Shown here piece after piece: positions 34,852-56,700 of a stretch of 64,000 nucleotides of DNA; position 1 is the stretch's first letter, and each line of letters opens with the position of its first letter. The position numbers were made by a program, and so were the translations under genes. Source of the stretch: Heliopora coerulea (taxonomy: Eukaryota; Cnidaria; Anthozoa; Scleralcyonacea; Helioporidae); NCBI GenBank assembly GCA_030142905.1, contig JASJOG010000146.1, positions 434,001 to 498,000 on the forward strand. Reading direction: 5' to 3'. The notes under the pieces were generated by a model. It searched no databases and was not told where the DNA came from. It worked only from the letters and a program-made list of their open reading frames with translations.

Positions 34852-37800
34852 ATGAAGATAGCGATTTTGACTCTGAGCCTGTGGGCCATTACAGGTAAGA
34901 TCTTTAATTTTTAAATAACTGAAGGGTGATGACCAGTATGATGGTCATGAAATTAGACAATGAGCGACAATGACCATGCAGTAAGGCTAGCGAAGGCTAC
35001 ACATGTGAACCGCTTGAAATGTTCTCATGACTTCTTATAAACATAGGCCGGGTCGTTTGTGTAAAATTGCTACGTTCACGCCACGTCATGATGTGTGCAA
35101 AATATTTCTTAATATAAACCTACTTTTGGATAAGCTCAAAAGAAAACTCCTACTAGTCGAAAGGCTTAGACAGCTTGGCCCTCAAAAAAACATTTGTCTC
35201 TTCGTTCAGGCATACAGCATCAACGGACAATGAAGATGTGCGTTATAAAACGTTTTAAAGATCATAGGAAGTTCTCTTTCAGAAACAACAAACCACGACA
35301 ATGCTTTTAACCCTTAAAAAGCAATGCATACACTGATATTAACTTTATAACTTGTCATCGCTGGTCAATATTTTGTAACTTGTAAATGAACAAGTTCATT
35401 CTTCTCATCGTTAAATGGTCATCCTTGTTAATGGTGCAAATACTTCTCAACTTTTCTTTCAAATTTTCTCCCACAGCAGACGCTGGTCCTGCTATTAAAT
35501 CAACAGTTCCACCACCAACAACGCCAACAGCACCACCAACACCAACTCAAACAGCACCTGCTTTACCTGCAGATCTAGTAGGTAGGTACACCTGATTATC
35601 CTCATTCTCACTTTTGAAACGACTCCCGAGTTAACTTAAGTTTCAAGTATTTAGGTAAAAGTTTTTTAGTCTAGTCACATTTTTTGCTGATAATGAGCAG
35701 TGGATATTGTTCGAAATATTCACTAATAAAACCTGTTTCAACTTCTTGTTATCTTATTTATTGTAATATTATATGCTCATTCCAACAAATTTCTAACGAT
35801 TTTATGCCTTATAACCCTTGCCTGGCGTGAGCTCTACATCTGACTGGTAAAATAATCTGGCCATAGCCAGAGTAAAATGATGGAGATCTTATCCCGCTAG
35901 GGAAGCGTTAAACTAAAATCTAAACTAAGCAATGTCCTAGCCTTGATACCTTAACTAATCTAGTCCAAATTCCAAGAACTAAATTTGATTTACTAACTTA
36001 AGCATATTTTATTAAAATTAATTAAACTCGAATTTCGACGGATTTTCATTATTTTTTTTTCCAGCATCAAAGTACAAGGCCTCTTTCAAACTAGCTAACG
36101 TTAAATATGCGGATGAACTCACATCATACGATTCAGGGGTCTACCAGAACTACGCTGGCAAAATATTAAAAGCAGTAAGTCAAATATCATTTAGGATTAT
36201 TTCCAATAATGCAAAATACGTAGAAACACAAGTTTTGAGACTAAGAGTAATTAATGAATGGACGCATTAATCTAGAAAACCAAGTTGTGTGTAAATTTTG
36301 GTATCAGTGTAGCGCCTAAATGTATATGGCCAGGATTCTCTCTAATGCTTTTCTATACGTTTCCGACTTTTTGACTTTTTCTGGCTAAAGCCAGACGATT
36401 TCCCTTGTCAAGTGGAGGTGTTTAGGTCCGAAAAGGCTTAATACGTCTTCGCTTCAATCACGGAAAAATATCAATGCGCAGCAAAATATTTTAGGCATTG
36501 AGGCATTGATATTTATTCGTACATTGCGCTCCTAGTGGATCAATAGCCGGCCTCTTTTGTAAGGTCTAATGTAAACATTACAACAACAAAAACAACAACA
36601 ACTATAAAATAAAATCAACTACGACCATAAAACTAACAATACACACAATAAAAACTATTGCAAAAAACAAAAGCGAAAAGTATCAACAGCAAAAACTAAA
36701 AGGAGAAAGAGGAACAAAAGATGTGGATGTGACAGAGAGGAAAGCAACAATCACCAAAAACGACAAAGACAACAACAACCGCAAAGAAAGCGGCAACAAC
36801 AACAATAACAACAATAATAAAAACAACAGAGACAACAACAATAACAACGACAACAACAGCAAGAACAACAGAGACAACAACAATAACAACAAAGACTACA
36901 ACTACAACGACTGCAATCACAACTACAACACAGACTACAAACTGAAACAACAACAACAATAGCTAACGAAGTAAATGGAGCCTAAATTTATATACATCCT
37001 TTCAGACTTCATTGTCGTTACCTTCCTTGTTAAATTGGTTTACTAATCATCAAGTAAAATTTTATAAATGTTATCAATGATGGAGCAAATTAATAAAATA
37101 ATATAAAAGGCAACATATAACAATGTGTACCATGACGATAAAGATAAAAACTGCAGAAGCGACAGCAACATTGTCCAAACTTTAAGAAAAACAATTACTC
37201 TAAAGTAGATCTGGAATAATAAAAAACGGGTCTCGACTTAACAGAACTCTAGTTTAGCTTAATACATTTTTGTAAATTCTTTCCCTGACATTACGTTCAT
37301 TTTCTATTATCTATTAGCTCATGGACCTATATGCTGATGATAATGCTTACCGTGACGCCCAGATGATTGGATTCAGGTAAGTGGATCTTTATTTTGCTGT
37401 ACATGCCACTTATATAACAATTTAATCTGCAAAAGAGAAACGACTTACCATTTACCACTTCCAGATACAAAATTCACGCCATTACAAGTTATTCAGTGTC
37501 TCCAGGAGCTAGATCTCTATCAGTTGATCACGTAACAGGGAAATATAAGAAAGGGACGAGTAATTTTCGGGAACAAGAAATTTGTTTGATAAAATTATGA
37601 AATTCTTTTCGACTTGTTAAGGTTGCATTTAAGCACGCCTATGGCAGTGGCATAACTAGAACTTTCTTACTGGAGGGACTTGAAGGAACCTTAGTAAATT
37701 ATGGGGACGGGCAATATCTTGTGAAGACTTTAAATTAAATGTCATCTAGTACACATGAACTATGGACACGTGTAATTTGATAGTGGGTGAAGATTACATT

Positions 37801-39313
37801 ACTCTATAATCTGAGGTGACCCTTGTGGTCACTCAGGATTCTTTTAGAGAAGACTATTGTCCCCCAGACCACCCCCGCTAGTTACCCCACTGCGTTATAA
37901 ATACTCCAAAATATTGAGAAGCTGCTGACTAAGAACAGAAAATTCCAACGTTCGGAGCAAATGCTCTTCGTCAGTGAGTGAAACACAAAGAAAAATAGAA
38001 ACTAGGTGAGGTAGTCTAGGTTGGACAGTTCTCATTCTCACGGCTTTTTCGATGTTCTTAATTCATTGGTGGTTTGGTTCGTGGTTTTTCTAAGAAATAG
38101 TTTTTGTTTTGTTCTGTGACTCCAAGGAACGAGTCTGGTGTTGTTGCCGATGTCTCATTGCGCTTTGCTAACGAGAGCAAAAATCTTGTCAGTCTTGATG
38201 CCTTAATCAAAACGGGAGTGCTTGGTGAACTCCCTGTGGACCCAGCGTCGTTCAACGCCAGTAAGTTTCTGATTAATATATAATTCTTTCAAAAAAATCA
38301 CACTTATATATAAACAAGAAATTTTAATTTTTCCTTTGAAATAAGAACGGCTTTATAACCGCTCGATATCACGGAGTCAAAGTTTGCGATATTAACTTGG
38401 AGACCATGCTCCAAAAATTTAACAACTGCATGCTGAAGGTTCTTTACAAACAACGCTAGAAAATAACTTCAAAAATGACTTATTTGCTTTCAAAATGTAC
38501 GCGATAACGACCCCGTTCCTCCAAGAATTTAACATAAATGGCTTTGTAACCGCTCGATAGAATTATGTTGAAGTTTGTGAAGTAAATCTTAACATTATCC
38601 TAAACAAATCTGATTACTGCTTGCTGAAGATTCTTCAAGAAAAACGCAAGAAAATATCTTCGAAGACGAGCTGTTGTTTTCCTTCAAAAAGTACGTGATA
38701 ATGGTCCTTCCTCCCCAAGAATTTAACACGAGCGGATTTGTAACCGCTCAATGAAACTGCGTAAGAATTTGTGTTTAATCTGTAGACCATGTTCGACTAA
38801 TTTGACTACCACACACTGAAGGTTTTCGATAAACAGCGTGAGAAAATATATTCAAAAACGACTCGTTTCTTTTCAAAAAGCACGTGATAACGGTCTTTTG
38901 GTTACGAGGTGAGCAAGAATTGTGCTCTTGCGAGGTAATCTCATGCACGAAGGTAAGGAATCGTATATGACAATCGCATGATATGGACAGGCATTTACCT
39001 CTTAAAATCCTAATTTAGTGACAATTTTCTCCTTTCAGCTGTCGATGAGTCATTTCCTGCGATAGTTGTTGGTATGGGATGTCCACCTCCTTGCGGAGCA
39101 CCGACAACATGTTACCCACAATGCAATCAAGACTGTTGTGGCAGTTCCGCACCCTCAGCTCCATACACACCCCAGATGAACCAACCATTCGGAACTCCAA
39201 TGCCCATGGGAGGAGAATCTCAATGCCCCGGATCGTGCCCAAGCTCCTGTGCTCCTTCTTGCGAACAGTCTTGCTGCGGAAGTACAGGTGGCCCAAGTCC
39301 CATGATGGGCTAA
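34852..39313 (+). CDS. Gene A: secreted SEA-domain protein with two minicollagen-type cysteine-rich domains (241 aa)
   Basis: Six exons with matching phases: 34852-34894, 35477-35581, 36065-36174, 37318-37376, 38127-38260, 39039-39313 (726 nt). Residues 1-17 form a signal peptide (MKIAILTLSLWAITADA). A Pro/Thr-rich linker covers residues 18-49, and a SEA domain covers about 50-150 with GFR at the end of its fourth exon and SGVVADV near the usual autocleavage position (strict GSVVV is absent). Two cysteine-rich domains follow: C165-C184 with spacing CX3CX5CX3CX3CC and C213-C230 with CX3CX3CX3CX3CC. A Pro/Gly/Met linker lies between them. The second pattern is exactly that of cnidarian minicollagens, whose domains cross-link the nematocyst wall through disulfides. 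There is no collagen tract and no membrane segment. Exon 2 has a tandem CAGCAG acceptor that could add or drop one residue. It is paralogous to Gene B immediately downstream. The role in nematocysts is inferred. Confidence 0.88.
35814..35908 (+). repeat. dispersed repeat copy (Gene A intron 2)
   Basis: Contains ACTGGTAAAATAATCTGGC followed by CAGAGTAAAATGATGG. It is related to the copy at 50820-50920 (GAGTAAAATCGTCTGGCG, CAGAGTAAAATAC) and to an inverted piece at 36378-36433. Probably one non-autonomous element family spread in the introns of both paralogues. Confidence 0.55.
36570..36965. repeat. CAA/AAC-rich imperfect microsatellite
   Basis: About 400 bp of AAC, ACA and AAT units with purine interruptions, in intron 3 of Gene A. 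It yields poly-Asn or poly-Leu/Val frames that are not genes. Confidence 0.9.
37938..37978 (-). ncRNA. hammerhead-ribozyme-like motif
   Basis: On the minus strand the core CTGACGA is followed by the stem GAGC-ATTT-GCTC and then CGAAC. This matches the minimal hammerhead pattern CUGANGA - stem II - GAA. Helices I and III are not clear. Such motifs are known in Penelope-like elements and retrozymes. It lies in Gene A intron 4. Confidence 0.4.
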
Positions 39314-40241: not shown

Positions 40242-43200
40242 ATGCTTGGATTTTGTTTATTTCTTTTGCTGTCATTAACAGGTAGGTTTGTTCAGAAATT
40301 CAATCGACATTTGTCGACCCTATGAGACGGCTACCGTATCGATTTTATAGAGGAAGGACGTTATTCGCGCAACGAAGAAATAAAGATAATCGGGAAGATA
40401 ACCAATGTTGATGACCGCTAATCTGTTTAATGCCATTTTAGGTATAGCGGTGGCAGCATTAGTTTCTTTCATTCAACCTTTAAACACTTTCAGTTATCTC
40501 ATGATCACACAACATTACCCATCTCAAACTAAATCTAAAGTCCAAGAATTGCAGATCGCTGCTTTGTCATTTACCGAAACAGCAGATCCTCACCGTGAAA
40601 TTATAGTTTGAACATGTTGCAATCGTGTTTGAACGATTCTGGAGAGCAATAAAGTAACTCATGTTGTCATCTTCAAGAAGCTGGAATAAAGCTTAGCTTC
40701 ATTTAGGCAATGGTTTCAACGAATGGACAATTGTCCCAACACTGAGTGCATAATGGCATGAAAACATCTAACTAAGCGAAAGAACCACGGAAATTTCAAG
40801 TGCAAATCAATGATCATAAAATGATCATAGACTCTGATCATAGATCCTGAAACTGACGAAATAGCCACGGATGTTTCACGCACGTTTCTCATTAACGCAC
40901 ATTACACTAATGTACTAATTACATTCGTGCAAAGTATTACCTTGATTTTGAGATTAATATAAAATTCAATCTATCCAAGGACAGTTAAAATGTACAAAAG
41001 TTTACCTGAAGCTGCTGCGGCATCTAAGACATAAACATCGTTTGAACAAGTTGTTCGTAGCACTAGTTACCTCTAAATCATTACAAGCTGTTGTACCTTC
41101 TTTGTTGAATTTTGTAAAATTCTTGTTCTTCTATTATGTTAAATTGTCTGAAGTACTCTACTTTTTAAGTGTGCACTTATCGGAATACAATAAAACAAAT
41201 AAATCAATACAAAGTCAATGCTCCATGGCGTACAATCAGAATTAAAGAAAAATATTCAACAGCACTAAACGGTCTACTAGGGAAGAAAATCTAGGACGTT
41301 TTAAGTTTTATCACAATAACACAATGATCAAAATTCAATCCTATATTTATTTATAATAACACTTACATTACGAAGCCTAATCTCAAAAGCTATTTTCAGT
41401 TGAATAATTTGTAAGAAGTTAGTAGATTTCATTGTACACGCCGTTGTACCGTTCACACAAAATGGACATTTTCACGTACTTAGAAATTAGTTTTAAGTTA
41501 CGTCGGAAGTACATTGAAACCTCAATCAGGTCTTTTTTCCACCTTTTTGTGAATCACTGCTATCAGTGCATAGAGCCCCAACAGTTTACAAAGAATATTA
41601 GTCTCTATTAGTTCACGATCTTTCTTTCGTATTGGGTATTCTTCCTCTTGCAGCAATCCCACCAACAAAACAAACCAAGGCTCAAAAGCTTATCAGATTC
41701 CTTACAAGATGGAACAGCAAGGCATACAATGCAAGAACGAGGGTAACGAGAATAAACAATATCGAGTTGGGGTGTGTTTGTTCAAATAGCAAACAAACTC
41801 ATAGGAAGATGAAGAGGTTAGTAGTTTGGAAATTCTGAATGCTAGGAAAAACAATAAAAACATAATACGATAGTATGTTAAAGATCATTTATAGCTCAAA
41901 AAAGGAGTGGACATGGTTTCTCTCAAGCAAACTTAATTCTTTATGTTATTTAAAATGACAAAATACCTCACAGCTCAACAAAGAACAGAAAAACACAATG
42001 CGGCACAACTTATCACCACGGCACAACACAGTACGAAGTGAAGCAGCGCAATAGAATCCTACACAAGTAGATGGGATATGATACCACACGACAAAATACC
42101 GTCCAACACAACACAATACAAAACAATACAATATAATATAGTACAATGTAGTATAGTACAATATAGTACAATATAATATAGTACAGTGTAGTATAGTACA
42201 ATATAATACAATACATATGATCTTTAAAATCGCGGTAATCGAAGAACCAGGCGGAAATCTCAAGCAAAGTATAAAAAGTAGTGTCCAGCATATTGTACGG
42301 AATAGAGGCATGACAAATTCGTAACTTTTAAGAATAATTTATTAAGGAACAGAAACTAACGTTTCGTTGCAGGACGCAACATCATCAAAATGAGACAATA
42401 GGTAGGATTACATCAATTATACAGCAGACTAACTAGGATTATATTGCGATCAGTTGATCTTATTTTTATTACATATGATCTTCTTTTTGCGTTATGTTGT
42501 ACAGTGATGACATTTTTTTGACAAAAGATAACAGACCGGCAAATGTTAACCAAAGTGGCATAGTCTATTCCCAAAATTGTTGCAAACAGAGAAAGAAGGA
42601 CAGTCAAGGTAGAATAACATCAACATATTACGCTGCATATAACCAACATCAAAATTAAACGGTTGTATTACTGATTATCACTGATCATCGATTGTTAATA
42701 ACGTTGTACTATATCCAAGGACAAGCAAGGCTATATTTTAAAATCAATTTATTTTAAAATCAATTTATTTTAAAATCAAAGTTTATTCAAAACAGAATTG
42801 TCACCAACCCAAGGTCAAACTAATGTCCCGAGCAATTGGATCAGAAATTTTAATAAACTTGAAAAACATCTTAGATCGGTATTTTTGAGTTCAAAAATCC
42901 TTATTTCATTTATACGTTTTAGAAAAATCATCCAACTAATCAATTTCACAATTCTAGCGCAACTCCTTCCATAGTATACAAAGTCTATTTGATTTTTTTT
43001 CTATTTATACGATGTTTTATATGAAATCTACATAATGTCTCATACCTATGCGATAGCTTAGGTTAATTCATTATGAAATATCGTTTTATCAGGGTTGGTT
43101 TTGTTTTTCAGCATTTGAATATCCTCTCACAATTCCACTTGGTAACAACGCGTTTTCCTCACAGTTAAAAGAACTCTCGAGCATAGAATACAGGAATTTG

Positions 43201-46200
43201 AAAAGAAGGATATATACAAATGTAAGAAACATGAACAAATATTTAAAATAAATTGCGAGCTTCAGAAGGAAAGACAATATTACAGCGTACAGAAACTCGT
43301 AATTTTTACGTTCATTATAAGCTTTAATATTTTGTATGGCTCCGAATTACGCTTGACTTTTGCTTGTTTCAGATCTTGCCATTTCTTCAAAAACAACGCG
43401 GATTTTTGGAAATAATTGTCAATGCTGTTAGGTAAATTTGTTACACATGCTTCCTAATTACCTTTAACAGACCATATTCATATATGGCCGCCTATTCAAT
43501 TATTCTTTTGTATGCATTCATGTTAGTCTTTCGAGCTTTGCTCCGGTGTAAAAATTCTTTTGAATTATAAACACCCGAACAAAGTTCGAAAGGCTGGTAT
43601 CAAAACAATGAGAAGTTTATTTCACCAAGTATGAGGTGGTCTGCTTCCAAATCAAATTCTCCTTTCGAGAGCTTAGTGCGGTATCTCACAACGAATCCAA
43701 ATGTAAGGAGAATGCCGTGTTAGAAATATCGGAATCTCGTGCTGGTTAAGAATACATTTAAAAACCAACGTATCGGTACTAATTTTCAGTGGGTTTTCCT
43801 CATAAGTCATTAATGAATTTGAGATATCTCAAATACACAGATCACTACCGTATTGACAAATCGAGATAAGGAGAGTTTTTCGACCTACACTAACACGTTT
43901 TGATTGAAGAGCAGAAACTCTGATGTGTGCACTTTCACCTCTGCAAGACGTGAACGGTTGAGAAAATCGAGAAACGTTAGGCAAATTAATCGTCGTATTC
44001 GATCAAATATGTCGTGACAAGTTACAGTAATCAGGTTTTTTTAGTTCAAGTTCTTCCGTAAATGATTAAGGTGCTTTTAAACTTTTATTTCCATATGAGT
44101 TAGACCGTACAACGTTGACCTCGTTTTAAAGACCAAAAATCATGTGACTTCTTCGTTATTGGAAAAACTTAAAACATTCGTGAATTCTGGTTGGACTTCA
44201 AATCTGAAAAACGTACCAAGAAAAAGAGGTAAGACGGCAGGAGCTACGTCTTTTGATTACCTCCAAAACAGTTGTTAGGGTAAGATGATATTATAGCCTG
44301 TTTTACCAAAAACATACGTGATAAGTTGGTAACCATATACCTATAAAAACATACTAATATTGATCTATTAAGTACGTTTACAGTCATTTAGCTACAAAAG
44401 AATCCTATTTTGTTCCACGACAGGGTAAGCACGGCAACCAGTTTTACTATAAAACTGAAGCAAGATTCTAAACAGTAAAAAAAGATGAGTATATCTGTCA
44501 CTTCTTCAAAAACTCGGAAGGAGTCCATCATATATTAAAAATCTTGAGCCTTCGAATAGTCTACGAAGCCACTAGATGATCGAGAGAGTTGTTTCAATTC
44601 TCACAGAAAAATCCAAAATGGTCTAGTTGAATGAAATGAGCTTATTAATATGGCTAGAAAAATTATTCTTTATATTCTTCAAGTTTTTAGAGACAGTTTT
44701 CGTGAAGAATATTTTAACATCAGCCCAAGAAACCAGACAATGTACACTACGTCATCCTTAAAAAATTATTCTGTGGTTTTAACTTCAGAGCCCACCAAGC
44801 TCTCTGCAGTGGTTTCCGAGGACGTTGACCAATCAGCAGGGTTATCCTTCCTAATGGGTCCCCCAAGTCCGGCATTTTCAGAGATACCCTTAACATCCTC
44901 ACGTCCGAATGGACGTAATAGTAAACGGAATGGACTTTACAGGGAGTCGAAAAAGAAGATCCCTTCGGGACCAAATGAAACTAAAGTACCGCCGAAATCT
45001 CGACGATCGGTTATAGGAAGACCTGGAACCAAGCCTAAGGACAGAGAGCCGGGGTTACAATCTCAGAAAGACAGCAAGGCTGACCAGAACCAACGTGTGG
45101 TCAGTTATCTAAACTTCAAGCGTGGAAACATAAACACACCCACTCTATTTTCGCGAGAATGCCTTTGTGCTCACAACTACAAACGACAGGCGCATGGAAT
45201 GCCGTCGCTAAAATGGTCAGCGGATTTAGCCACACAAGCTCAAAACTGGGCAAATGAGGTGGCGTCGGGGCAAACATTTCCACAAAAACTAAGGAATAAA
45301 AGTGGAGAAAATATCTACATTTCAGAAGGAATTGTGGATCTTTCGACGTCGTGTCTTATGGCTGTCAATTCATGGTACAACGAAGGCAAGGACTACAATT
45401 ATAAAAAACCTGGTTTATCCAGTCAAACAGGTTTGTTTATTTCTAGAGGACACAGTAAGTCTTAAGGTATTCATTAGTTAACTTATTATCAACACGGCAC
45501 AACGACAGCAGTATTGCAAGGGTTCTTTCCATCTCAGTCAACGCCAGGTGTTGCTGAACAATCGATAATCAACTCAGATTATCTCAGTTCAATTTCTTTA
45601 TTTTGCAGGGCATTTTACTCAACTTATTTGGAAGTCCTCATCAGACCTTGGTGTTGGGCGAGCTATTACACCCACAGGGAAACTGATACTAGTAGCCCAA
45701 TATCGACCAGCAGGAAACACCCCAGGAAAGTTTAGACGAAATGTTCGAAAGTCTGTTCAAAGTGAGTTGAATTAAAATTACGTATAGATAGCCTTCTGCA
45801 AAGGCAATTTACTAAGGAGTGACGTTATAAAAATTAGTACTGTAACTGAAATTTACGTCACTGTGCATACATCGAAATATAAGATTCTAGACGCGCTGAC
45901 GGGATTCTCGATTGGCTGTAACCGTGAACAGTAATTTAGAGGATAAGCTAATTAGTAATTCATTATAATTTATCATGAGACTACACTTTATTACAGGTCA
46001 TTATAGCATTATAACAAATTATCTAGGATAGTAATTTATCATAGGATTAGCCTGGTTATATGCATGACTTTAAGAGATTATCTTAATTCGTCATTTATAG
46101 GATTAGCGTAACTAGTAGTTTAGGGAATTAGCTTAGTTTATAGGACTATTAATTCACAGGAATAGATTGCATACACTTTGATTTTATCCTGTTGTTACAA

Positions 46201-49200
46201 TGGACCTACTAGTGACTGCTATTTTTAGACATTAACAAAAAGAGTTAAGTTATTACTGACAGACTTGTGCAGGTATTCTGCTTTCATCCGTCGTAAACAT
46301 TGCTCTCAAAGGAACCATTATTAAAAACTACCCCACCAACGAGATGTTGTATTAACTCCCTGCTGGATCAACTCGTCATCCAGGAACATAATTACTTCGC
46401 AAAAATTTCACCACTTTCTTTCCTTTCAGATATACCATTTAGTTCCACAGATGTTTGCTCACAAGACTGCCCAGGCCCATTTGGTCCCCCTGGATCAACT
46501 AGAGCTAATTCATCTGGTCCTTCCATCATCTCCACCACTTCTATTCCTCCAGGATTGCCTGGCCCACCAGTTCCAGATGAGTTAACAGATTCTCAAGCCT
46601 TCGCTTCTGACCTGCCTGGTACATCTAATCCTCCTAGTTCCTTTAGATCTACTGGTAATGGTCCTTCGGGTACCTTGCGCCCTGTAAGTTCCTTTGAAAC
46701 AGACCCTGGCCCTCCAGGAATGACCAGTTCTTCTAAAACCACCGATACTGATCCTCCTGGTACATATAGTCCAACTAGGGTACCATCTATCACTTCTCAT
46801 ACATTAGACCTTCCTGTTATACCAGGTGCCCCTGGTCCATCTGGATCTTCTAGCACAACTGGTCATTTGGATACATCAAGCCCTCCTGGTATACCAGGTC
46901 CTCCTGGTACACCAGGTCCTCCTGGTACACAGGGTGCTCCTGGTATACCTCCTCTTCCGCGTGTACCAGGCCGTATTGGTACATCTAGTCCTTCTGGTAA
47001 ATATGTTCCTGACGAAACACCAAGTCCTCCTGGTACATCAGATTTTCCTGGTACACTTTATCCTACCAATACACCACGTCCTGGTGCATCAAGCCTTACT
47101 GGTAAACTAGTTCCTACTGAAAAACCAGGCCCTCCTGGTACATTAGGTTCTCCTGGTACCCTCGAGCCCACCAATACACCAGATCCTCCCGGTATACCAG
47201 ATCCGCCAGGTAAACCTGTTCCCAGTGTTACACCAGGCCTGTCCGGTACATCGGGTTCACCTGGCTTCCCTAGTCCACCTGGTTCACTTGACACATCATA
47301 TCCTCCTGGTACATCTGGACTTACTCATCCCCCTGGCTCAACTCACGCATCAGGTCATCCTGGTGCGCTTGCTTTACCTGATTCATTAAGTCTTCCTGGT
47401 ACACCAGGACTTCCTAGTGGCCCTGACTCACTAGAAACACCAGGTCCCCCCGATACGCCTGCTTTAACTGATACGTCAAGTTCTCCCGGTAAACCTGGAT
47501 TGCCTGGCACCCCTGGCTCATCTCATACACCAGGTCCCCCTGGTAGGCCTACTTCACCTGATACATCAAGTCCTCCAGGTAAACCTGGATTGCCTGGCGC
47601 CCCTGGGTCACCACATGCATCAGGTCCTCTTGGTAAACCTGCTTCACCAGAAACGTCAAGTCCTCCTGGTACACCTCTACTGCAGGGTGTCCCTGGCTCA
47701 CCTGATACAACAGGTTCACCTGGAAGACCTGTTCCACCTGATCTACAAAGTTCTCTTGGAATATCTGGACTTCCTGGTACCCCTGGATCACCTCATACAT
47801 CAGGTCCTCCTGGTACGCCTGTTTCACCTGATACATCAAGTTCTATTGGAACATCTGGACTGCCTGGTACGCCTGGGTCACTCGACACACCTCGTCCTCT
47901 TGGTACATCTGAACTTCCTAGTGCCCCTGAGTCACCTGTAACATCAGGTTCACCTGCTTCACCCGATACACCAAGTTCTCTTGGAACATCTGGACTTCCT
48001 GGTAACCCTGGGTCACCTCATACGCCCCGTCCTCCTGGTACATCTGAACTTCCTAGTGCCCCTGAGTCACCTGTAACATCAGGTTCACCTGTTTCACCCG
48101 ATACACCAAGTTCTCTTGGAACATCTGGACTTCCTGGTAACCCTGGGTCACCTCATACACCTTGTCCTCCTGGTACATCTGAACTTCCTAGTGCCCCTGA
48201 GTCACCTGTAACATCAGGTTTACCTGTTTCACCCGATACACCAAGTTCTCTTGGAATATCTGGACTTCCTGGTAACCCTGGGTCACCTCATACACCTCGT
48301 CCTCCTGGTACACCTGGACTTCTTAGTGCCCCTGAGTCACCTGTAACATCAGGTTCACCTGTTTCACCCGATACACCAAGTTCTCTTGGAATATCTGGAC
48401 TTCCTGGTAACCCTGGGTCACCTCATACACCTCGTCCTCCTGGTACATCTGAACTTCCTAGTGCCCCTGAGTCACCTGTAACATCAGGTTCACCTGTTTC
48501 ACCCGATACACCAAGTTCTCTTGGAACATCTGGACTTCCTGGTAACCCTGGGTCACCTCATACGTCAGGTCCTCCTGGTACACCTGGACTTCTTAGTCCC
48601 CCCGAGTCACCTGTAACAGGTTCACCTGGAACACCTGTTTCATCTGATACATCACGTTCTCTTGGAACATCTGGACTATCTGGTGCCTCTGGGACACCTG
48701 AGACATCACGTCCTCCTGGTTCCTATGAACGTCCCCGTGCCCCTGGGTCACTTGATACATCAGGTTCACCTGGTATCTCTGCCTTACCTGATACTTCAGG
48801 TCATCCTGGTACGCCTGTCACATCAAGTTCTTCAATGATATCTTATTCACCAGGTACATCGGGCCGTCCTGGTATACCCAGTTCATCTGGTATATTAGGT
48901 CTGGCCAGTTCCCAAGAATTTCACATAACTCCATCACCTGCCCGTCAACCTGCGCCACACTTTCTACCAAGTACACCTGTGTCAACCTCAAAACAGTGGA
49001 AAACATTTATTAGTCCGACTCCTTCATTGCCAATTTCCCAACCGAACTCTCGTCTTCCCAAACCGTTCTTGCCACAACTATTAAAATTGAGTCTATCCCA
49101 GAACCAACTTACTTCACCTGTCACTACAACTCCTCACAAGCAACCTCCAAAGATGAAACCAAAAGAAGAGAAAGAGGATATTTTTATTAATTTACCTTCG

Positions 49201-51732
49201 GGACCTACACCACCAAAGATTACAGGTAAAGACTTTTAACTAAAATTAGTGATATCTTTTCTCATGTAGCGCCACAAAACACCTCTCTAAGTTCAATTGT
49301 CGCTGGAGTAAGTCAGTAAAACTACTACCTATCCTGAAGGTCTTTACGTAAGCTCAAGTGAAAAAGAAAAAATTACAAAGCGGGTACGTTCTACTTGGTA
49401 TTCGATATTCAAGTTAAATACGTGAATGAACGAAGCAATAGCCCGTTAAATTGCCAGTCCGTACTAAAGTCTTATCAAACGAAGTCTATAAGAGGGTAAT
49501 AAGAAAATAAGTTTTCATTGCTACGATGAAGTGCACCTCGAAACGTTCGTCTGTTCTAGATCAGTGCAGTAGCTTTCTCCTCTTTCGAACAACCAAATTA
49601 ATATTTCCAATCTCCGCAGTAAAACTATGATCTCAAGCACAATGGAACGCAATTCCAGACTGTTAATCACATGATTGTTTCAATTTCAAGTTCACATGTA
49701 GAAAACCAGACTTATCTATCATTTTTTTGTATTCATCTTGATAAAATGTTTACATTAATTTACACAGGAAAGGATTTCAGAGTGACAATCATTCTACGAC
49801 AGCAAAGATTCACCAGGGATTTGATGTACTCGACCAACCTCATCTTTAACCAGTTAACAAAAGCAATAGAACAGGCGGTATTTGAACAAATTACATCAAA
49901 TTGTAATTTTAACGACAAGTTATAATCAAATTGATAAATCATTATCATAAATAACGATTAATTACAACAAATCGTAATACATCCTAATCAAATCATTAAT
50001 TGATTAATCACGTTGAACTAACTTATATCAGTTTCATTTATTTCAACACTTCGTCTCTACTTTGATACAATCTACTTCAAATTTAATCAAGATACTAAAA
50101 CATGTTCTCAAGAAATCATGAAATCGAAATCTTAATAAACTTCAAATACGAAATGACTAAGTATAAGTGTAGTATAATATGGAAGCCCAAAGCTCATGCT
50201 GTTTGAACATGATGCCAGGACTCAGAATTTACATCAATATGTATAATTCAAGTAATGATTATTGTGTTAGAGTGTTTGACGTTATGAAGGGCGGTAAAGG
50301 TTCGTCAAGCTAAAAACTCAGAATATGAATTAAACTTGTAACCTTCAGATTGCTAGTTAGACGCTCCAACCATTCAACCATGTACACTCACATGGACACT
50401 CACATGTACACTCACATGTACACTCACATGGCAAACCTCAACGCATTTGCAACATTGGCTCTCCGTCTAAGTCCTGATTGCTCAATGGTTAAAGCATCAA
50501 ACCGAATATTAATAGTAACTATCTAGTAGTCTACTGCAAATGCTGCAACCTGATTGGTTACACGCTAATCTATTTGTATCTGTTGGTTGGTATCCAGTAC
50601 CCGAGAGTAATGTATTTTTTTGCGCGACATGAAATCTGGCAATGATCCGACAACTCCTTTTGGTTTTTTTTTTCTAGATACGCAATCTTTACGCAGATAA
50701 TTCCTATTTTACGGATGTCCAAGTTAAGGGATTTCGGTAAGTCGTTTGCTTGAATAGTGCCTTTACTTCACGCTATTAACTAAGACCTTTTGAACAATTC
50801 CGAAGATAAACTTTAACTCTCTCCTGTCCAAGAGGTCTCCCCGTTGACGAGTAAAATCGTCTGGCGTTAACCAGAGTAAAATACCAAAGTCAGGTATGGA
50901 CCCGTAAGGATTAAACTTCATTACAAGAGCCTGCTTACCTTAGATGCAGGCTTGGTCTGTATTACTGATGCAAACTTAATAATATCCCAATGGTTTTAGT
51001 CATTGCATTTCAATGATTTGTTTTTTCAATTCAGCGCTGTAAGAAAGAATGCAACTACATATTCTAAGATTCTTTCAAACGTCAAACCAACACAGATATT
51101 CTTTGGTGAAGACCTTTTGACTGCTGCAATAATTATCTTAAAATTCAACAAAGTCATGAAGGGACATCTTGTTTTTCTTAAAAATCAGTTAGACAGTGGC
51201 ATAGTGGGAAGTGTGCCAGTGGAAAAGACGTTTTTTGCAGGTCAGACTATTTTTGTTTTTCCATGACACCGTCCGTAAGGTTTCCGTAAGGTTGGGATAT
51301 GGTTATTCAGTCTGATTAAGGTTATATTGGTCATATGTAAGAGTGTAGCCAAGTTTGACTCTATCAAACAACAGAGGTTTTCTCCGGTTATCTGGTTTCC
51401 TCCTGTAGTGAGACTAGACCCATGAAGGGATGGCCCTTACTGAACCTCTCGGGACAACAGTTTTAGTTGTCGACGAGGTTATCCAGTATACACAATTACT
51501 TGCTTCCCTCCTCTTATTTTTAGTTCGTCTGGACAAAAACCACTGTACCTCAATTTGTGGTAATCCATCCATATGCTACCCAGCATGCACATCAACCTGC
51601 TGTAGCGTAAATAGCGAGTTTACTTACCCAGAATCCTTTGGATACTGTCCAACCTCGTGCGCAGTCTCCTGCACACCGTCATGTCCACCGCGATGCTGCT
51701 GGACCGGAGTATCGCGGATGCATGTTAGGTGA
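40242..51732 (+). CDS. Gene B: secreted SEA-CAP-Pro/Gly repeat-SEA protein with two minicollagen-type domains (1,493 aa)
   Basis: Ten exons join with all phases compatible (4,482 nt): 40242-40281, 43112-43221, 43373-43431, 44691-45430, 45609-45761, 46430-49225, 49768-49877, 50678-50736, 51035-51240, 51524-51732. Order of parts: signal peptide (MLGFCLFLLLSLT); SEA-like domain about 15-120 (FSSQLKELSSIEYRNLK); basic linker with KR, KKK and RR sites; CAP/SCP domain about 222-367 with the full tetrad H231, E276, E301, H318 and GHFTQLIW; 930-residue Pro/Gly/Ser/Thr region; second SEA about 1300-1424; cysteine-rich domains C1432-C1451 (CX3CX5CX3CX3CC) and C1466-C1483 (CX3CX3CX3CX3CC). CAP plus minicollagen-type domains recalls NOWA, but I see no C-type lectin domain. 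The least certain join is the first: the signal exon could also use acceptors at 40441 or 41653. Likely extracellular or capsule structural protein (inference). Confidence 0.82.
40441..40611 (+). other. possible alternative terminal exon of Gene B
   Basis: After ATGCCATTTTAG the sequence stays open in the phase of the signal exon for 56 codons to TGA. AATAAA signals follow near 40648 and 40684. Joined to the signal exon it would encode a secreted peptide of about 69 residues without cysteines in the mature part. It may equally be chance. Confidence 0.25.
41653..41838 (+). other. second possible alternative terminal exon of Gene B
   Basis: A very strong acceptor (TTCTTCCTCTTGCAG) is followed, in the phase of the signal exon, by an open basic sequence starting AIPPTKQTKAQK and ending at TGA, with an AATAAA about 20 nt downstream. 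A donor (AGG|GTAACG) inside it is in the wrong phase for the SEA exon at 43112. Confidence 0.3.
42106..42212. repeat. AT-rich tandem repeat (AGTACAATAT)
   Basis: Ten-bp variants AGTACAATAT, AATATAGTAC and GTGTAGTATAGTACA over about 105 bp, in intron 1 of Gene B. They give a Tyr/Ile/Leu/Cys-rich minus-strand frame that is not a gene. Confidence 0.85.
42352..42392 (-). ncRNA. hammerhead-ribozyme-like motif
   Basis: Minus strand: TTGATGA, T, stem GTTGC-GTCCT-GCAAC, then GAAACGTTAG. Same stem II as the motif at 53371-53404, so the two belong to one repeat family. The first core base differs from consensus (T for C). Confidence 0.4.
42736..42781. repeat. 16-bp tandem repeat, three copies
   Basis: Three near-identical units of TTTTAAAATCAATTTA in Gene B intron 1. 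Confidence 0.9.
46888..46950 (+). other. seven uninterrupted Gly-X-Y collagen triplets within Gene B
   Basis: Codons read GIP GPP GTP GPP GTQ GAP GIP. The rest of the exon is Pro/Gly-rich but breaks the triplet rhythm. Minicollagens have short Gly-X-Y tracts of a dozen or so triplets, so this may be a relic or a minimal version. Confidence 0.8.
47905..48640 (+). repeat. coding tandem repeat, 135-bp (45-aa) unit, five to six copies
   Basis: Units contain LPSAPESPVTSGSP, VSPDTPSSLGTSGLPG and NPGSPHTPRPPGT with few substitutions. The copies are nearly identical at DNA level, which indicates recent homogenisation by unequal exchange. The unit length preserves the reading frame. Weaker, older repeats of the same theme extend on both sides through the exon. 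Confidence 0.9.
49521..49556 (+). ncRNA. degenerate hammerhead-like motif
   Basis: CTACGATGAAGTGCACCTCGAAACGTTCGTC keeps GATGA and CGAAAC at the right distance, but its stem II is weak. It lies in intron 6 of Gene B. Confidence 0.25.
50379..50432. repeat. CACATGTACACT short tandem repeat
   Basis: About four and a half 12-bp units with one G/T variant, flanked by tRNA-like D-arm sequences (an inverted one near 50345-50380 and a direct one near 50470-50495). Probably part of a SINE-like insertion in Gene B intron 7. Confidence 0.7.
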
Positions 51733-53404: not shown

Positions 53405-53705
53405 TAAATTTATTCGAAAATATTTCAAATCCTCTTCATGGTTTTTCACATAATTTTGAGCTGGGTTCTTATCTTTATTTTTCGTATACGTTTTCCGCCC
53501 AGAAAATACATCGCAACGTTAACAAGCTAATATTTGAATAACCTGCCAATACAGAAGTTTTAGTCACTTGGGGATAATGTTAGCCCTGCAGGCAAATATT
53601 TAAGACAGCTGACGGGGGCTTCGTCACAAGAGACAAAGCTCCTGTGGTGTGAATACCTACGAACATCACTACGTGCAAACACGTCCCACACTTTACGGCA
53701 TCATC

Positions 53706-56700
53706 ATGAGAGCGTGTGCAAACGGGAGGGCGACAGTCTTCGCCATAATCGGTGCCGCGATCTTACTTTTTATCCTGGGCTTCCTCATCGGCTATTTTGC
53801 CTCGCCACGCTCCAGTGGCGATTCTTGTGACAGCGATGGGAACAGGAAGGCGGTGCAGCAGAAGAAACAAGAGTTCCATCAAAGGCTCTACGACAGTTTG
53901 AACGCCGAAGAGATAGGGAAAAACTTAAGGTTGGTTACTTCTTCAATCTAGAATGCCAGGTTTCAGTCAGTGTTCATTTGTTTTCCTCATTAACTTCCGT
54001 ACATACATACAACATTGCACGCTAGTCAGTCGTTCAGTTAATGTAAAGTCTTGTAATAATACAAGAGCTGTTCAATCGTGTCTTGAACATTACAAGTCCT
54101 CTCAAGTTAACTTTATCACAAGTCCTCGATGAAATTACGCACGAAACTGAGACCTCTTGTCTAAAACCATTCCAGGATTAATCTTTAAGTCGTCTTAAGC
54201 AGACGATGTGTAGCAAGCCTAATTAAAGGCTTATTTTCGTGGGCAGAGGACTCGTAAACGTAAACGTAAAACGTAAATGTAAGAACTCATTTCTGATGTA
54301 CTCCAGATGAGCGAGGTTAAGAAAAGCATTAAAATCATATCGGCATAACTGGAGTAAATCATTAAACTGTCACCAGTCAAAGTTAGGCGCACTTTGGAGA
54401 TAATATTTTAATTTTAATTGACGGGCGGCACTCGGCTGTCACAATAGGCCCATAGAAAGCATGGGGAAGTGAAAAGGTGTCGAAAGGGATAACAGAAATA
54501 CGATTCGTGCGCTCACCACTGTCATTTCTATCTTTGGAATATTCGGAACGTGTTTAGCCTTCTTGCTGAGTGCAATCTGGCGAATTCGGATCCATGTATA
54601 TCCAAACAAGTCTGGTCATTTGATTTCGGATACTTTCACTTTTGATGCTTTTAATCTTGAGCCCTTCACTTTTTTTCCTCCACTTTTGATACTTTTTTCC
54701 GGACGCGGGATATACATTGTGTAAACACTAGAGGGAGGACCCATCACTACATCAATCATCCATCATCTAAATTTTGTGCTTTTGCTAACGGCCAGTGCTA
54801 TGATCCAGTATATTACTCTCTTCGGTTTCTCAACCGAATTCGAATGCAAAATGTTTCAGAAGCGATGGTACAGGAAGCGGTCGCGAATACATTTGATGTT
54901 TGTTACGAGAAGAAGGAATTTCAGGAACTTTTAGAAAAAAAACACACACAATATTGAATATATCAATCGATCGTTACGTCAACAATCAATGTGTACGATT
55001 TCTGATTTACATCCGCCAGGAAGTAGCGTTTTTGTTTGAAAATTGTCGAACACTTAATAGTTATGCATTCTGGTTAGTCTTCGCTGACGTAAGAGCCAGC
55101 CCTCTTGGTATAGCTAGCCCTAGTAATAAGGCCAAACTTCACCTCGCCTTTACATCGGAATTCTCTGACCCTTCTAGCAGGGATGGATCGAGCGCACATG
55201 CGTTCATTACTTTTTCCCAGCCCTCTTAGGATGGCCAGCGTTTCTGAGAGTGTTTACTTGGAAAATTTCCAGCCCCCACTTCTCTCTCAAGGCGAGATCT
55301 CGGGTAGTCAATGGCGAGGTCACGCTAAGAAGGGCTGGTTCTCCTCATGTACACGAAAACAAATTTTACAAGGGGTTTCACGGGGAGGCGAGATCTCGGC
55401 GAAAAGAACCAGTCCCACAAGGAGGGCTGGCTCTCTTCCATGTTAACACCATCTCTTAAGAGATGTTAGTATGGTGTTTATTGCTCACGCATTTGATTGA
55501 GACAGCATAAAAAAGTATCAACGTTGTGGTGACTTAAGCATCATGAAACATGTCAACGTCTGCGTATTTGAGCGAGTAACTACTGTCGTTAATTACCCAG
55601 CATTATGTTTACATTAGTGGAGACTATCAGGATGACTACCATACGTCGCAGACTTGGCCAGGAATGCGTTAAAATGCGAGCAATATCCTTTTATTATTTC
55701 CCATATTTCTTTAATTTCACATATTTTTTATCGTTTATACTCCGTATTTTTTCTTCTATTTCTCGTATATTTTTTTTTTCGTGTATTTCTCATATTGTTT
55801 TTATTTCCCGCATTTTTATTTCATTTCTTTTACTTTTGCTTGACGTCAATCACGTTTCGTAAGATAAAAACGTCTTTGACGGCTTTAACGTCTTTTACTA
55901 GAAAAACGATGAGTTTCTCTTCGAGCATAAATCAAAGTGATTGTAACATTGCATTACGCTAATCCAAACCTCTGCAGCATTTTACGTTTCAAAAAGTAAG
56001 TCTTATGTTCAAATTGCCCAAGTTTTCAAATTTTTCTTACCTCTATATTTCATACCTCTTCCAATATCATGGCACTTTAGATATTTCTCTAAACGTCCAC
56101 ATGTTGGAGGCACACCGAGATCGAAGGAGTTAGCCAATGAAATTGAAAGGCGGTGGCGAGAATATGGGTTTGACAAAGTGGAACAACCAAAGTACAACAT
56201 CCTACTGCCTAAAGTTAGCCCAAATGTCTCAAACAAAGTGCAGATTCTCCATCAAAATGGCGACGTAGTCTTAGAGTTCTCTGGAAAAGAAAAGGTACAA
56301 TTTGGTTAAAAACCATGAAAACTTCCCTTACAGCTTTCATTTATAAAGTTCCTTAAGTTTGGTTCTTTCAAGTTCCCTAAACTTTAATTTTTACAACATT
56401 CAGCTGGCAGATCCTAGCGAGAACGACACAACGATGATTCCTCCGTTGCTTGGTTTTGCAAAACCTGGAGCAGCGAATGGCACTCTGCTGTATGTAAACT
56501 ATGGAAGGAGAGAGGACTTTGAATTTCTGAAAAACAACCTGAGTATTCCGGACTGCAACGGCAAAATTGTCATCATGAAATATGGTAAAATATATCGTGG
56601 AGACAAGGTAATTATTACAGTTCACTGATCACAGTTTCAGTGAAAAGGACATGGAGTGACATAGAAATACTGCTAAGATGGACGAAACGAATAAAATAAC

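What the first reader, a model, noticed from the sequence alone, without database searches (positions are those of the whole stretch)
40242..51732. A 1,493-residue SEA-CAP-Pro/Gly-SEA-minicollagen-domain protein
Seen: ten exons whose phases all agree, with SEA, CAP (complete H/E/E/H tetrad), a 2.8-kb single-exon Pro/Gly/Ser/Thr repeat, a second SEA and two C-terminal cysteine-rich domains, one exactly CX3CX3CX3CX3CC. Known: that cysteine pattern marks cnidarian minicollagens, and the nematocyst wall protein NOWA combines CAP with such domains. Inferred: this is a NOWA-like but distinctly built protein, probably secreted into the nematocyst capsule or another extracellular matrix, and I know of no described protein with this order.
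Basis: partly seen in the sequence, partly recalled or inferred. Interest (0 to 1): 0.88.

Follow-up and report, generated by a model that had tools for sequence, protein, structure and literature searches.

The report
Probable stinging-capsule matrix protein gene
A probable cnidarian genome carries, next to a small sister gene, a large gene for a secreted protein whose end resembles the cysteine-rich domains that staple stinging capsules together, joined in an unfamiliar order to SEA, CAP and proline-rich parts, so it may be a new building block of the stinging organelle.

Summary
I rebuilt the gene: 10 GT-AG exons, consistent phases, exactly 1,493 residues. CAP is solid (Pfam 3.7e-22). The second SEA and the two C-terminal cysteine domains are secured by homology; the first SEA is supported mainly by its first two exons. 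The repeat exon is Pro/Gly/Ser/Thr-rich with short, interrupted collagen-like blocks.

At 34852-39313 lies a tandem sister gene of 241 residues: signal peptide, Pro/Thr linker, SEA, two minicollagen-type cysteine domains. Its exons 2-6 match focal exons 6-10 in order and phase, and the C-termini align end to end (E 4.6e-19). Four relatives of the small protein, 55-71% identical, show a conserved family.

The variant domain CX3CX5CX3CX3CC has the spacing of a CRD of the Hydra capsule-wall protein CPP-1; the canonical one matches only NOWA CRDs in the PDB. Best reading: a secreted, disulfide-crosslinked cnidocyst matrix protein that works like NOWA, CPP-1 and NvNCol-7 but is a member of none. 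Localisation, expression and a full-length orthologue are not shown. New variant of a known kind.

The parts
40242..40281 (+). Focal exon 1: start codon and signal peptide (MLGFCLFLLLSLT), ends in phase 1
   Evidence: hydrophobic start exon recovered as a control; no signal-peptide predictor was available
43112..43431 (+). Focal exons 2-3 (43112-43221, 43373-43431): SEA1, N-terminal part
   Evidence: 110 and 59 nt, phases 1/0/2, identical to SEA2 and to the sister gene; Pfam SEA E 0.0083 as a piece, 0.067 in context, below cut-off
44691..45430 (+). Focal exon 4: end of SEA1, basic linker, N-terminal half of CAP
   Evidence: relatives P0006 (4 of 271 residues of the ORF differ, none in the 101 CAP-half residues) and P0007-P0009 (68 of 101 CAP-half residues identical, no gaps)
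45609..45761 (+). Focal exon 5: C-terminal half of CAP
   Evidence: Pfam CAP 3.7e-22 for exons 4-5 joined; GAPR-1 1smb best PDB match, E 3.4e-21, run with the earlier 8-residue-longer splice
46430..49225 (+). Focal exon 6: Pro/Gly/Ser/Thr repeat region, 932 aa, 1-1 phase exon, with short interrupted collagen-like blocks
47818..48772 (+). 135-nt (45-residue) tandem array, 7.0 copies, inside exon 6
49768..51240 (+). Focal exons 7-9 (49768-49877, 50678-50736, 51035-51240): SEA2 with an insert of about 24 residues in its third exon
   Evidence: Pfam SEA E 0.0036, below cut-off
51524..51732 (+). Focal exon 10: two minicollagen-type cysteine-rich domains and stop
   Evidence: PDB search with the whole exon: 3 sequences at E<=10, all NOWA CRDs, best 0.0093, all aligned to mCRD2
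51544..51603 (+). mCRD1, CX3CX5CX3CX3CC variant
   Evidence: same spacing as the N-CRD of Hydra CPP-1 printed in PMC6910907; no PDB match of its own
51646..51699 (+). mCRD2, canonical CX3CX3CX3CX3CC
34852..39313 (+). Tandem sister gene, 6 exons (34852-34894, 35477-35581, 36065-36174, 37318-37376, 38127-38260, 39039-39313), 241 aa: signal peptide, Pro/Thr linker, SEA, mCRD, mCRD
   Evidence: Pfam SEA 1.6e-9, above cut-off; four relatives over 95-100% of its length
39080..39277 (+). The sister gene's two mCRDs (39080-39139 CX5 variant, 39224-39277 canonical)
   Evidence: PDB search with the canonical one: 5 sequences at E<=10, all NOWA or minicollagen CRDs, best only 0.27

Best explanation
The locus holds two tandem genes of one family, each ending in a SEA-mCRD-mCRD cassette; the focal gene is the giant member. 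The protein is made with a signal peptide, enters the secretory pathway and is packed into the developing cnidocyst (post-Golgi vesicle) of stinging cells. There the two C-terminal minicollagen-type cysteine domains exchange disulfides with each other and with minicollagens, CPP-type and other mCRD proteins, so the chain becomes part of the capsule wall, tubule or matrix polymer. The 932-residue Pro/Gly/Ser/Thr region is an extended, probably O-glycosylated spacer with short collagen-like blocks; its uninterrupted Gly-X-Y runs (at most 7 triplets, the next longest 4) are shorter than those of minicollagens. The SEA modules and the GAPR-1-type CAP domain are protein- or glycan-binding heads displayed from that cross-linked anchor. 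Shown here: gene structure, domain identities, the tandem sister gene, conservation of the small protein and of the linker-CAP exon. Inferred: single transcript, cnidocyte expression, disulfide incorporation, glycosylation, binding roles of SEA and CAP.
For: Consistent 10-exon model, 1,493 aa. CAP 3.7e-22. End-to-end homology of the focal C-terminus (SEA2-mCRD1-mCRD2) to the sister family: hhalign prob 99.1%, E 4.6e-19, 167 columns. Same exon order and phases, 1-1-0-2-1, from the Pro-rich exon to the mCRD exon in both genes. SEA exons 110+59 nt in 3 of 3 SEA copies. PDB sequence search returns only NOWA or minicollagen CRDs: 5 of 5 for the sister's canonical mCRD (best E 0.27), 3 of 3 for focal exon 10 (best E 0.0093). 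mCRD1 has the spacing of the CPP-1 N-CRD, and CPP-1 was localised to the Hydra capsule wall with an antibody to that CRD (PMC6910907, passages; comparison). Minicollagens of Nematostella are strictly in the cnidocyte lineage and include a long one with a discontinuous collagen region (PMC12549020, passages); exon 6 matches Pfam Collagen at 1.4e-8. Other mCRD ORFs read in this genome are proline-rich or multi-mCRD (4 of 4 loci). Model of relative P0001: SEA core with block means of pLDDT 60-84; the 7 PDB fold matches at E<=0.001 are, by title, MUC16/SEA or transmembrane-protease entries (that TMPRSS6 and the chain of 8gkl hold a SEA domain is recalled or inferred). Highest 19-residue hydropathy mean after residue 20 is 1.35, so no clear membrane span.
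Against: No transcript, proteome or cell-type data could be reached for the focal gene. No full-length orthologue: the whole-length query found only a multi-CAP protein, P0005, which looks algal to me. SEA1 and SEA2 are each below Pfam's cut-off, hhalign of the sister family against SEA1 gives probability 4.7%, and SEA1 and SEA2 show no meaningful BLAST similarity (E 6.9). Exon 6 shows no clear purifying selection: differences in the period-90 array are even over codon positions (47, 43, 43 of 170), and among six 135-nt units pS is 0.071 against pN 0.048 (single-difference codons only). No AATAAA lies between the focal stop and 54000, the end of that scan; the first ATTAAA is at 52559, 827 nt on. 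An mCRD in a large mesoglea collagen was reported as unpublished data (PMC4863159, passages), so an mCRD alone does not prove a nematocyst address. The short propeptide ending in Lys-Arg of Nematostella minicollagens (PMC3145756) is not recognisable: the small protein has no KR; the focal one has four, inside SEA1, the linker and CAP. Non-Cys identity of mCRD1 to the CPP-1 CRD is only 3 of 14.
Confidence: 0.68

Rival explanations
1. A mucin-like matrix protein of another compartment (mesoglea, epithelial mucus or, if this is a coral, the skeletal organic matrix) that borrowed mCRDs as cross-linkers. SEA next to a Ser/Thr/Pro-rich region is the hallmark of mucins such as MUC16 (recalled).
For: SEA plus a spacer with 29% Ser+Thr; fold matches to MUC16 SEA for the sister family; an mCRD in a large mesoglea collagen reported as unpublished; [quoted passage not shown] a SEA domain noted among coral larval aboral proteins (PMC12960093, one passage).
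Against: The CX5 mCRD spacing is that of a capsule-wall protein; Nematostella minicollagens are cnidocyte-restricted; one search for SEA domain with skeletal organic matrix and coral gave one paper, with no link to this architecture in its one passage.
Confidence: 0.18
2. Two or more separate genes wrongly joined: a secreted SEA-CAP protein (exons 1-5) and a repeat-SEA-mCRD protein (exons 6-10), or a truncated isoform ending by intron-6 retention.
For: Reading through the exon 5 and exon 6 donors meets a stop after 4 aa each (SELN, GKDF), so short isoforms are possible; ATTAAA at 45771, 46320 and 49080 and AATAAA at 50134; no full-length homologue was found.
Against: No signal-peptide exon candidate in intron 5 or 6 under the criteria used (0 and 0, controls 1 and 1); no AATAAA from 45296 to 50133; splice phases agree throughout; the Pro-rich-exon-to-SEA junction is the same in the sister gene, whose relatives carry linker and SEA in one protein.
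Confidence: 0.1
3. A soluble venom or gland-cell CAP protein with structural ornaments: the CAP domain is the working part and the rest is a carrier.
For: CAP proteins NEP-16, -17 and -20 are released from Nematostella nematocysts and NEP-16 is nematocyte-specific (PMC3627010, passages).
Against: Those are short with one CAP domain; cross-linking mCRDs argue for insolubility; the CAP is closest in the PDB to GAPR-1, ahead of venom CAPs; Pfam finds no CAP in the sister gene.
Confidence: 0.04

Closest known systems
NOWA (nematocyst outer wall antigen; [quoted passage not shown]
   Same: Secreted, CAP domain plus C-terminal mCRDs; the canonical mCRD here matches only NOWA CRDs in the PDB.
   Different: NOWA is a C-type lectin with 8 CRDs (PMC10014300, passages) and was called medusozoan-specific with a highly derived CAP (PMC3627010). 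Here: no lectin by Pfam, 2 mCRDs, two SEA modules, a 932-residue repeat. A highly derived NOWA homologue, NVE17236, is reported in Nematostella (PMC6161364, passages) and could not be compared.
CPP-1 (cnidarian proline-rich protein 1), Hydra capsule wall
   Same: Proline-rich spacer with mCRDs; its N-CRD has the same CX3CX5CX3CX3CC spacing and C-G, [YFW]-P signature as mCRD1.
   Different: CPP-1 has a predicted mature size of 26 kDa and a polyproline domain flanked by two CRD units, with no CAP or SEA in the passages seen. Non-Cys identity of its CRD to focal mCRD1 is 3 of 14.
NvNCol-7 and other minicollagens
   Same: mCRDs and, in NvNCol-7, a discontinuous collagen spacer of about 1000 residues (PMC12549020, passages); exon 6 matches Pfam Collagen.
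   Different: Longest uninterrupted Gly-X-Y run 7 triplets against blocks of mostly 12 or 15 in NvNCol-7; no N-terminal CRD; CAP and SEA present.
Sister family in this window and P0001-P0004: SEA-mCRD-mCRD proteins of 241-289 aa
   Same: Homologous end to end with focal exons 7-10; same exon phases in the window gene.
   Different: No CAP or SEA1, and a linker of a few tens of residues instead of 932.
GAPR-1 / GLIPR2 (CAP family)
   Same: CAP domain, best PDB match 1smb, E 3.4e-21.
   Different: GAPR-1 is a stand-alone intracellular protein (recalled); here CAP is one module of a secreted chain.
MUC16-type SEA mucins
   Same: SEA fold, shown for relative P0001 of the sister family, next to a Ser/Thr/Pro-rich region.
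   Different: No clear transmembrane segment; the C-terminus is two mCRDs.

Membership tests
Minicollagen-type cysteine-rich domain (mCRD) proteins | CX3CX3CX3CX3CC domain | tested here: met
   one canonical and one CX5 variant copy
Minicollagen-type cysteine-rich domain (mCRD) proteins | Disulfide cross-linking in the cnidocyst | not testable with these tools
   needs protein
Minicollagens | Central collagen helix of about 12-27 Gly-X-Y triplets | tested here: not met
   longest uninterrupted run 7 triplets, then blocks of 4, although Pfam Collagen is above its cut-off in exon 6, 34.8 against 27.2 bits; definition from PMC4863159 and PMC3145756 passages
Minicollagens | CRDs at both ends | tested here: not met
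   both mCRDs are C-terminal
NOWA | CAP/SCP domain | tested here: met
NOWA | C-type lectin domain | tested here: not met
   no lectin match in Pfam scans of exons 1-5, exon 6 and exons 7-10
NOWA | Eight C-terminal CRDs | tested here: not met
   two
CAP superfamily | PF00188 above curated cut-off, two His and two Glu in the usual places | tested here: met
   79.8 bits against cut-off 21.1; H231, E276, E301, H318 (role of these residues recalled)
SEA domain proteins | PF01390 above curated cut-off | tested here: not met
   SEA1 16.7 bits as a piece and 13.8 in exons 1-5, SEA2 17.9, against 26.4; the sister gene's SEA 38.3 passes
SEA domain proteins | Homology of SEA2 to a SEA that passes the cut-off | tested here: met
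   hhalign E 4.6e-19 over the SEA-mCRD-mCRD stretch; SEA-only HMM score 28.4, 0 of 2000 shuffles as high
SEA domain proteins | Homology of SEA1 to the other SEA copies | tested here: inconclusive
   exon pattern identical; HMM of the small family 4.6 bits, 9 of 2000 shuffles as high; with SEA2 added 11.1 bits, 0 of 2000; hhalign prob 4.7%
CPP-1 | Polyproline spacer flanked by CRDs | tested here: not met
   both mCRDs are C-terminal; only the CX5 CRD spacing is shared

The most novel reading that the evidence does not exclude
SEA-mCRD proteins are an undescribed cnidarian family in which the SEA-mCRD-mCRD cassette is a dedicated anchor that couples mucin-like chains to the disulfide network of the cnidocyst. 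The giant member would build the mucin-like, sticky fibrils of one cnidocyst type (for example spirocysts), with CAP and SEA as target-binding heads, and would have arisen by tandem duplication of the small gene, capture of a CAP exon and runaway growth of the small Pro/Thr exon.
Probability: 0.15. Interest if true: 0.75.

Novelty: new variant of a known kind. Interest (0 to 1): 0.56.

Why it matters
mCRD proteins are how cnidarians staple together an organelle that holds extreme pressure. Known spacers between the staples are collagen, polyproline or silk-like; a SEA-CAP chain with a mucin-like, interrupted-collagen spacer would be another class and would suggest that cnidocyst walls or threads carry binding heads, not only tensile material. 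The tandem sister gene gives a small, tractable protein of the same family whose relatives look like transcripts, so localisation and cross-linking can be tested on it first. The pair also offers a clear case of a giant matrix protein growing from a small one by exon duplication, domain capture and repeat expansion at matching intron phases (a history I infer).

Tried and rejected
Donor of exon 4 at 45454 (1,501 aa): rejected in favour of 45430 because the latter restores GHFTQ and agrees with P0007-P0009. (protein 1), 18, 19 and 23 were run with the longer version; CAP was re-run with the right splice.

I first wrote that the spacer is not collagen. A late Pfam scan of exon 6 gave Collagen, E 1.4e-8, above cut-off, two stretches; a recount confirmed a longest uninterrupted run of 7 triplets. 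The text now says collagen-like but interrupted; I left the odds as they were.

Whole-length homologue search led only to P0005, rejected as an orthologue. P0010 is a distant CAP protein and was left out of the conservation count; P0006-P0009 were kept.

Scans of genome contigs and viral contigs with the small-protein alignment found no relative. Selection test on exon 6 gave no clear signal. SEA1 against SEA2 by BLAST: nothing. Literature: SEA domain with minicollagen (1 paper), nematocyst with SEA domain (2 papers), cnidocyte with SEA domain (0), and (of these 9, 29, 83 and 94 listed only part of the papers found); no listing or passage seen describes SEA with mCRD. The library is open-licence only and does not hold the Hydra nematocyst proteome paper, so 'not described' is limited to that.

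Genome-wide questions left open because the genome search was busy on most tries: paralogues of focal exon 4, of the focal SEA2-mCRD stretch, and the exon pattern of all SEA genes. The one protein search answered did not list the focal SEA2-mCRD exons themselves at E<=0.1, so it misses relatives that distant and says nothing about further giant members.
Full report
What was checked. I rebuilt the gene from the raw sequence. My own first attempt used a later donor for exon 4 and gave 1,501; the earlier donor at 45430 gives the usual CAP motif SQTG-HFTQ, and relatives P0007-P0009 read SQTG at that point.

Domains. CAP is secure: 79.8 bits against a cut-off of 21.1, E 3.7e-22, best PDB relative GAPR-1, E 3.4e-21 (longer splice). 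Exon 6 is 2,796 nt and encodes 932 residues with 23.6% Pro, 18.0% Ser, 13.9% Gly and 11.4% Thr, built in part of 135-nt (7.0 copies) and 90-nt (6.7 copies) tandem arrays. Pfam finds Collagen in it, E 1.4e-8, 34.8 bits against a cut-off of 27.2, two stretches, but the longest uninterrupted Gly-X-Y run is 7 triplets (residues 521-541) and the next ones are 4: collagen-like, interrupted. The C-terminal exon holds CX3CX5CX3CX3CC and CX3CX3CX3CX3CC. The window contains 2 strict and 4 loose matches to the pattern; 100 first-order Markov windows gave none. A PDB sequence search with this exon returned three sequences up to E 10, all NOWA CRDs, best E 0.0093, all over the canonical domain.

The neighbour. 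The same two cysteine domains occur a second time in the window, at 39080-39277, and nowhere else in it. They end a six-exon gene, 34852-39313, encoding 241 residues: signal peptide, Pro/Thr linker, SEA (Pfam 1.6e-9, above cut-off), CX5 mCRD, canonical mCRD. PDB search with its canonical domain gave 5 sequences up to E 10, all NOWA or minicollagen CRDs, though the best E is only 0.27. Four relatives, P0001-P0004, are 55-71% identical over 95-100% of the protein, with all twelve mCRD cysteines kept. Their longest contigs are 968-1495 nt, too short for an intron-bearing gene like this one (4,462 bp), so I read them as transcripts (inference). AlphaFold of P0001 gave a SEA core with block means of pLDDT 60-84 and low confidence elsewhere; the 7 PDB fold matches at E<=0.001 are, by title, MUC16/SEA or transmembrane-protease entries.

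How the two genes relate. The focal C-terminus aligns end to end with the small family: probability 99.1%, E 4.6e-19, 167 columns. Entry phases of the Pro-rich exon, the three SEA exons and the mCRD exon are 1-1-0-2-1 in both, and the first two SEA exons are 110 and 59 nt in SEA1, SEA2 and the small gene alike. So the giant repeat exon sits exactly where the small gene has its Pro/Thr exon. SEA1 shares the exon pattern and aligns without gaps through its first 57 residues, but its last third is degenerate and its sequence support is weak: Pfam 0.0083 as a piece and 0.067 in context, below cut-off, hhalign 4.7%, 9 of 2000 shuffles as high with the small-family model and 0 of 2000 once SEA2 is included, no meaningful BLAST match to SEA2. 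I call it SEA-derived. A likely history (inference): tandem duplication of a small SEA-mCRD gene, a second SEA unit at the front, capture of a CAP exon, and growth of the Pro/Thr exon.

One gene or two. CAP spans exons 4-5, SEA1 spans exons 2-4 and SEA2 spans exons 7-9, so mainly the junctions 5/6 and 6/7 can be in doubt. A search for a start exon with a hydrophobic stretch, a fair donor and phase 1 found none in intron 5 or intron 6, while it found both known signal-peptide exons. No AATAAA lies from 45296 to 50133, though the weaker ATTAAA occurs at 45771, 46320 and 49080. The 6/7 junction is the one conserved in the small gene. Against this, reading through either donor stops after four residues, so truncated isoforms are possible; no full-length homologue was found; and no AATAAA follows the focal stop within the scan (to 54000), the first ATTAAA being 827 nt on.

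Conservation of the focal gene. P0006 differs from the window ORF over exon 4 at 4 of 271 residues (13 at the start and 10 at the end lie in introns), none of them in the 101 CAP-half residues (the search listed it at 95% over 67% of the query); it probably comes from the same or a very near species. P0007-P0009 share 68 of 101 CAP-half residues without a gap, while their linker carries 6, 9 and 9 copies of a motif that the focal linker has once. The CAP thus looks constrained and the linker free. Exon 6 shows no clear purifying selection.

Genome context. The window is C53:434001-498000 of a 429.8-Mb genome in 769 contigs, species not given; that it is a cnidarian rests on the mCRD genes. The CAP family has 36 exon matches at E<=0.001 (a lower bound), only one of them on C53. 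The small protein found 9 matches at E<=0.1: five exons of its own gene and four further places, C2 (two), C305 and C762, matched by mCRD, where the ORFs are proline-rich or carry several mCRDs. That search did not list the focal SEA2-mCRD exons, so it is blind to relatives as distant as the focal gene. The 10-kb flanks on either side of the window hold no mCRD pattern. Among the eight CAP loci fetched, the focal CAP is closest to those on C312, about 42% identical.

Comparison with the literature. NOWA is a C-type lectin with eight CRDs, now seen as a late tube antigen (PMC10014300, passages); its CAP was called highly derived and the protein medusozoan-specific, while Nematostella CAPs tend to be short and single-domain (PMC3627010, passages). 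A highly derived NOWA homologue is expressed in few Nematostella cnidocytes (PMC6161364, passages). CPP-1 is a proline-rich capsule-wall protein whose N-CRD, printed in PMC6910907 (passages), has the CX3CX5CX3CX3CC spacing; that CRD, focal mCRD1, the small gene's mCRD1 and P0001-P0004 all fit C-x3-C-G-x4-C-[YFW]-P-x-C-x3-CC, 7 of 7 (the signature was fitted to these sequences, and only 3-4 of 14 non-Cys positions agree with CPP-1). Nematostella has a long CRD protein, NvNCol-7, with about 1000 residues of discontinuous collagen, and its minicollagens are cnidocyte-specific (PMC12549020, passages). Minicollagen CRDs cross-link by disulfide exchange; Val/Ile at position 4 and Pro at 14 favour the C-type fold, which can make several links (PMC4863159, passages). 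Focal mCRD2 has Ser at 4 and Pro at 14, an intermediate, and its best PDB match (2hm4) also has Pro there, so its fold type cannot be called. In none of the listings and passages seen from ten paper searches was SEA joined to an mCRD, within an open-licence library that lacks the Hydra nematocyst proteome paper.

Verdict. The gene is real as described, with SEA1 only partly secured. Its most likely role is a disulfide-anchored matrix protein of the cnidocyst; it works like NOWA, CPP-1 and NvNCol-7 but fails a defining test of NOWA, CPP-1 and the minicollagens. The broader finding is a small, conserved SEA-mCRD-mCRD family next door, of which this is a giant relative.

Noticed in passing
window 34852-39313: Complete small sister gene (SEA-mCRD-mCRD, 241 aa) not listed in the finding; central to the interpretation.
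   Followed up: yes
window 53613-62236 and L019 (C53:498001-508000): Exons of a glutamate-carboxypeptidase-II-like gene (Peptidase_M28 and TFR_dimer in Pfam; name recalled) downstream, with closely similar ORFs again in the next 10 kb, so probably a tandem pair.
   Followed up: partly
window 58495-58566 (-): tRNA-Thr (anticodon GGT) inside the peptidase gene region.
   Followed up: no
L016 (C305:227344) and L017 (C2:4029849): Identical 143-residue ORFs with a canonical mCRD followed by proline-rich sequence on two contigs: recent duplicate or uncollapsed haplotype.
   Followed up: no
L015 (C762:568573): One ORF with three complete mCRDs and a partial fourth, separated by proline-rich spacers: a multi-mCRD protein.
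   Followed up: no
window 49226-49239: Reading through the exon 6 donor gives GKDF then stop, the same four residues that begin the spliced exon 7 (GKDFRV): a curious echo, possibly chance.
   Followed up: no
P0007-P0009: In a related sequence set the linker before CAP carries 6-9 copies of a unit around IGRPGTK that the window gene has once: independent repeat growth in the same protein.
   Followed up: partly
window 28340-28710: Long GGTA-type microsatellite.
   Followed up: no
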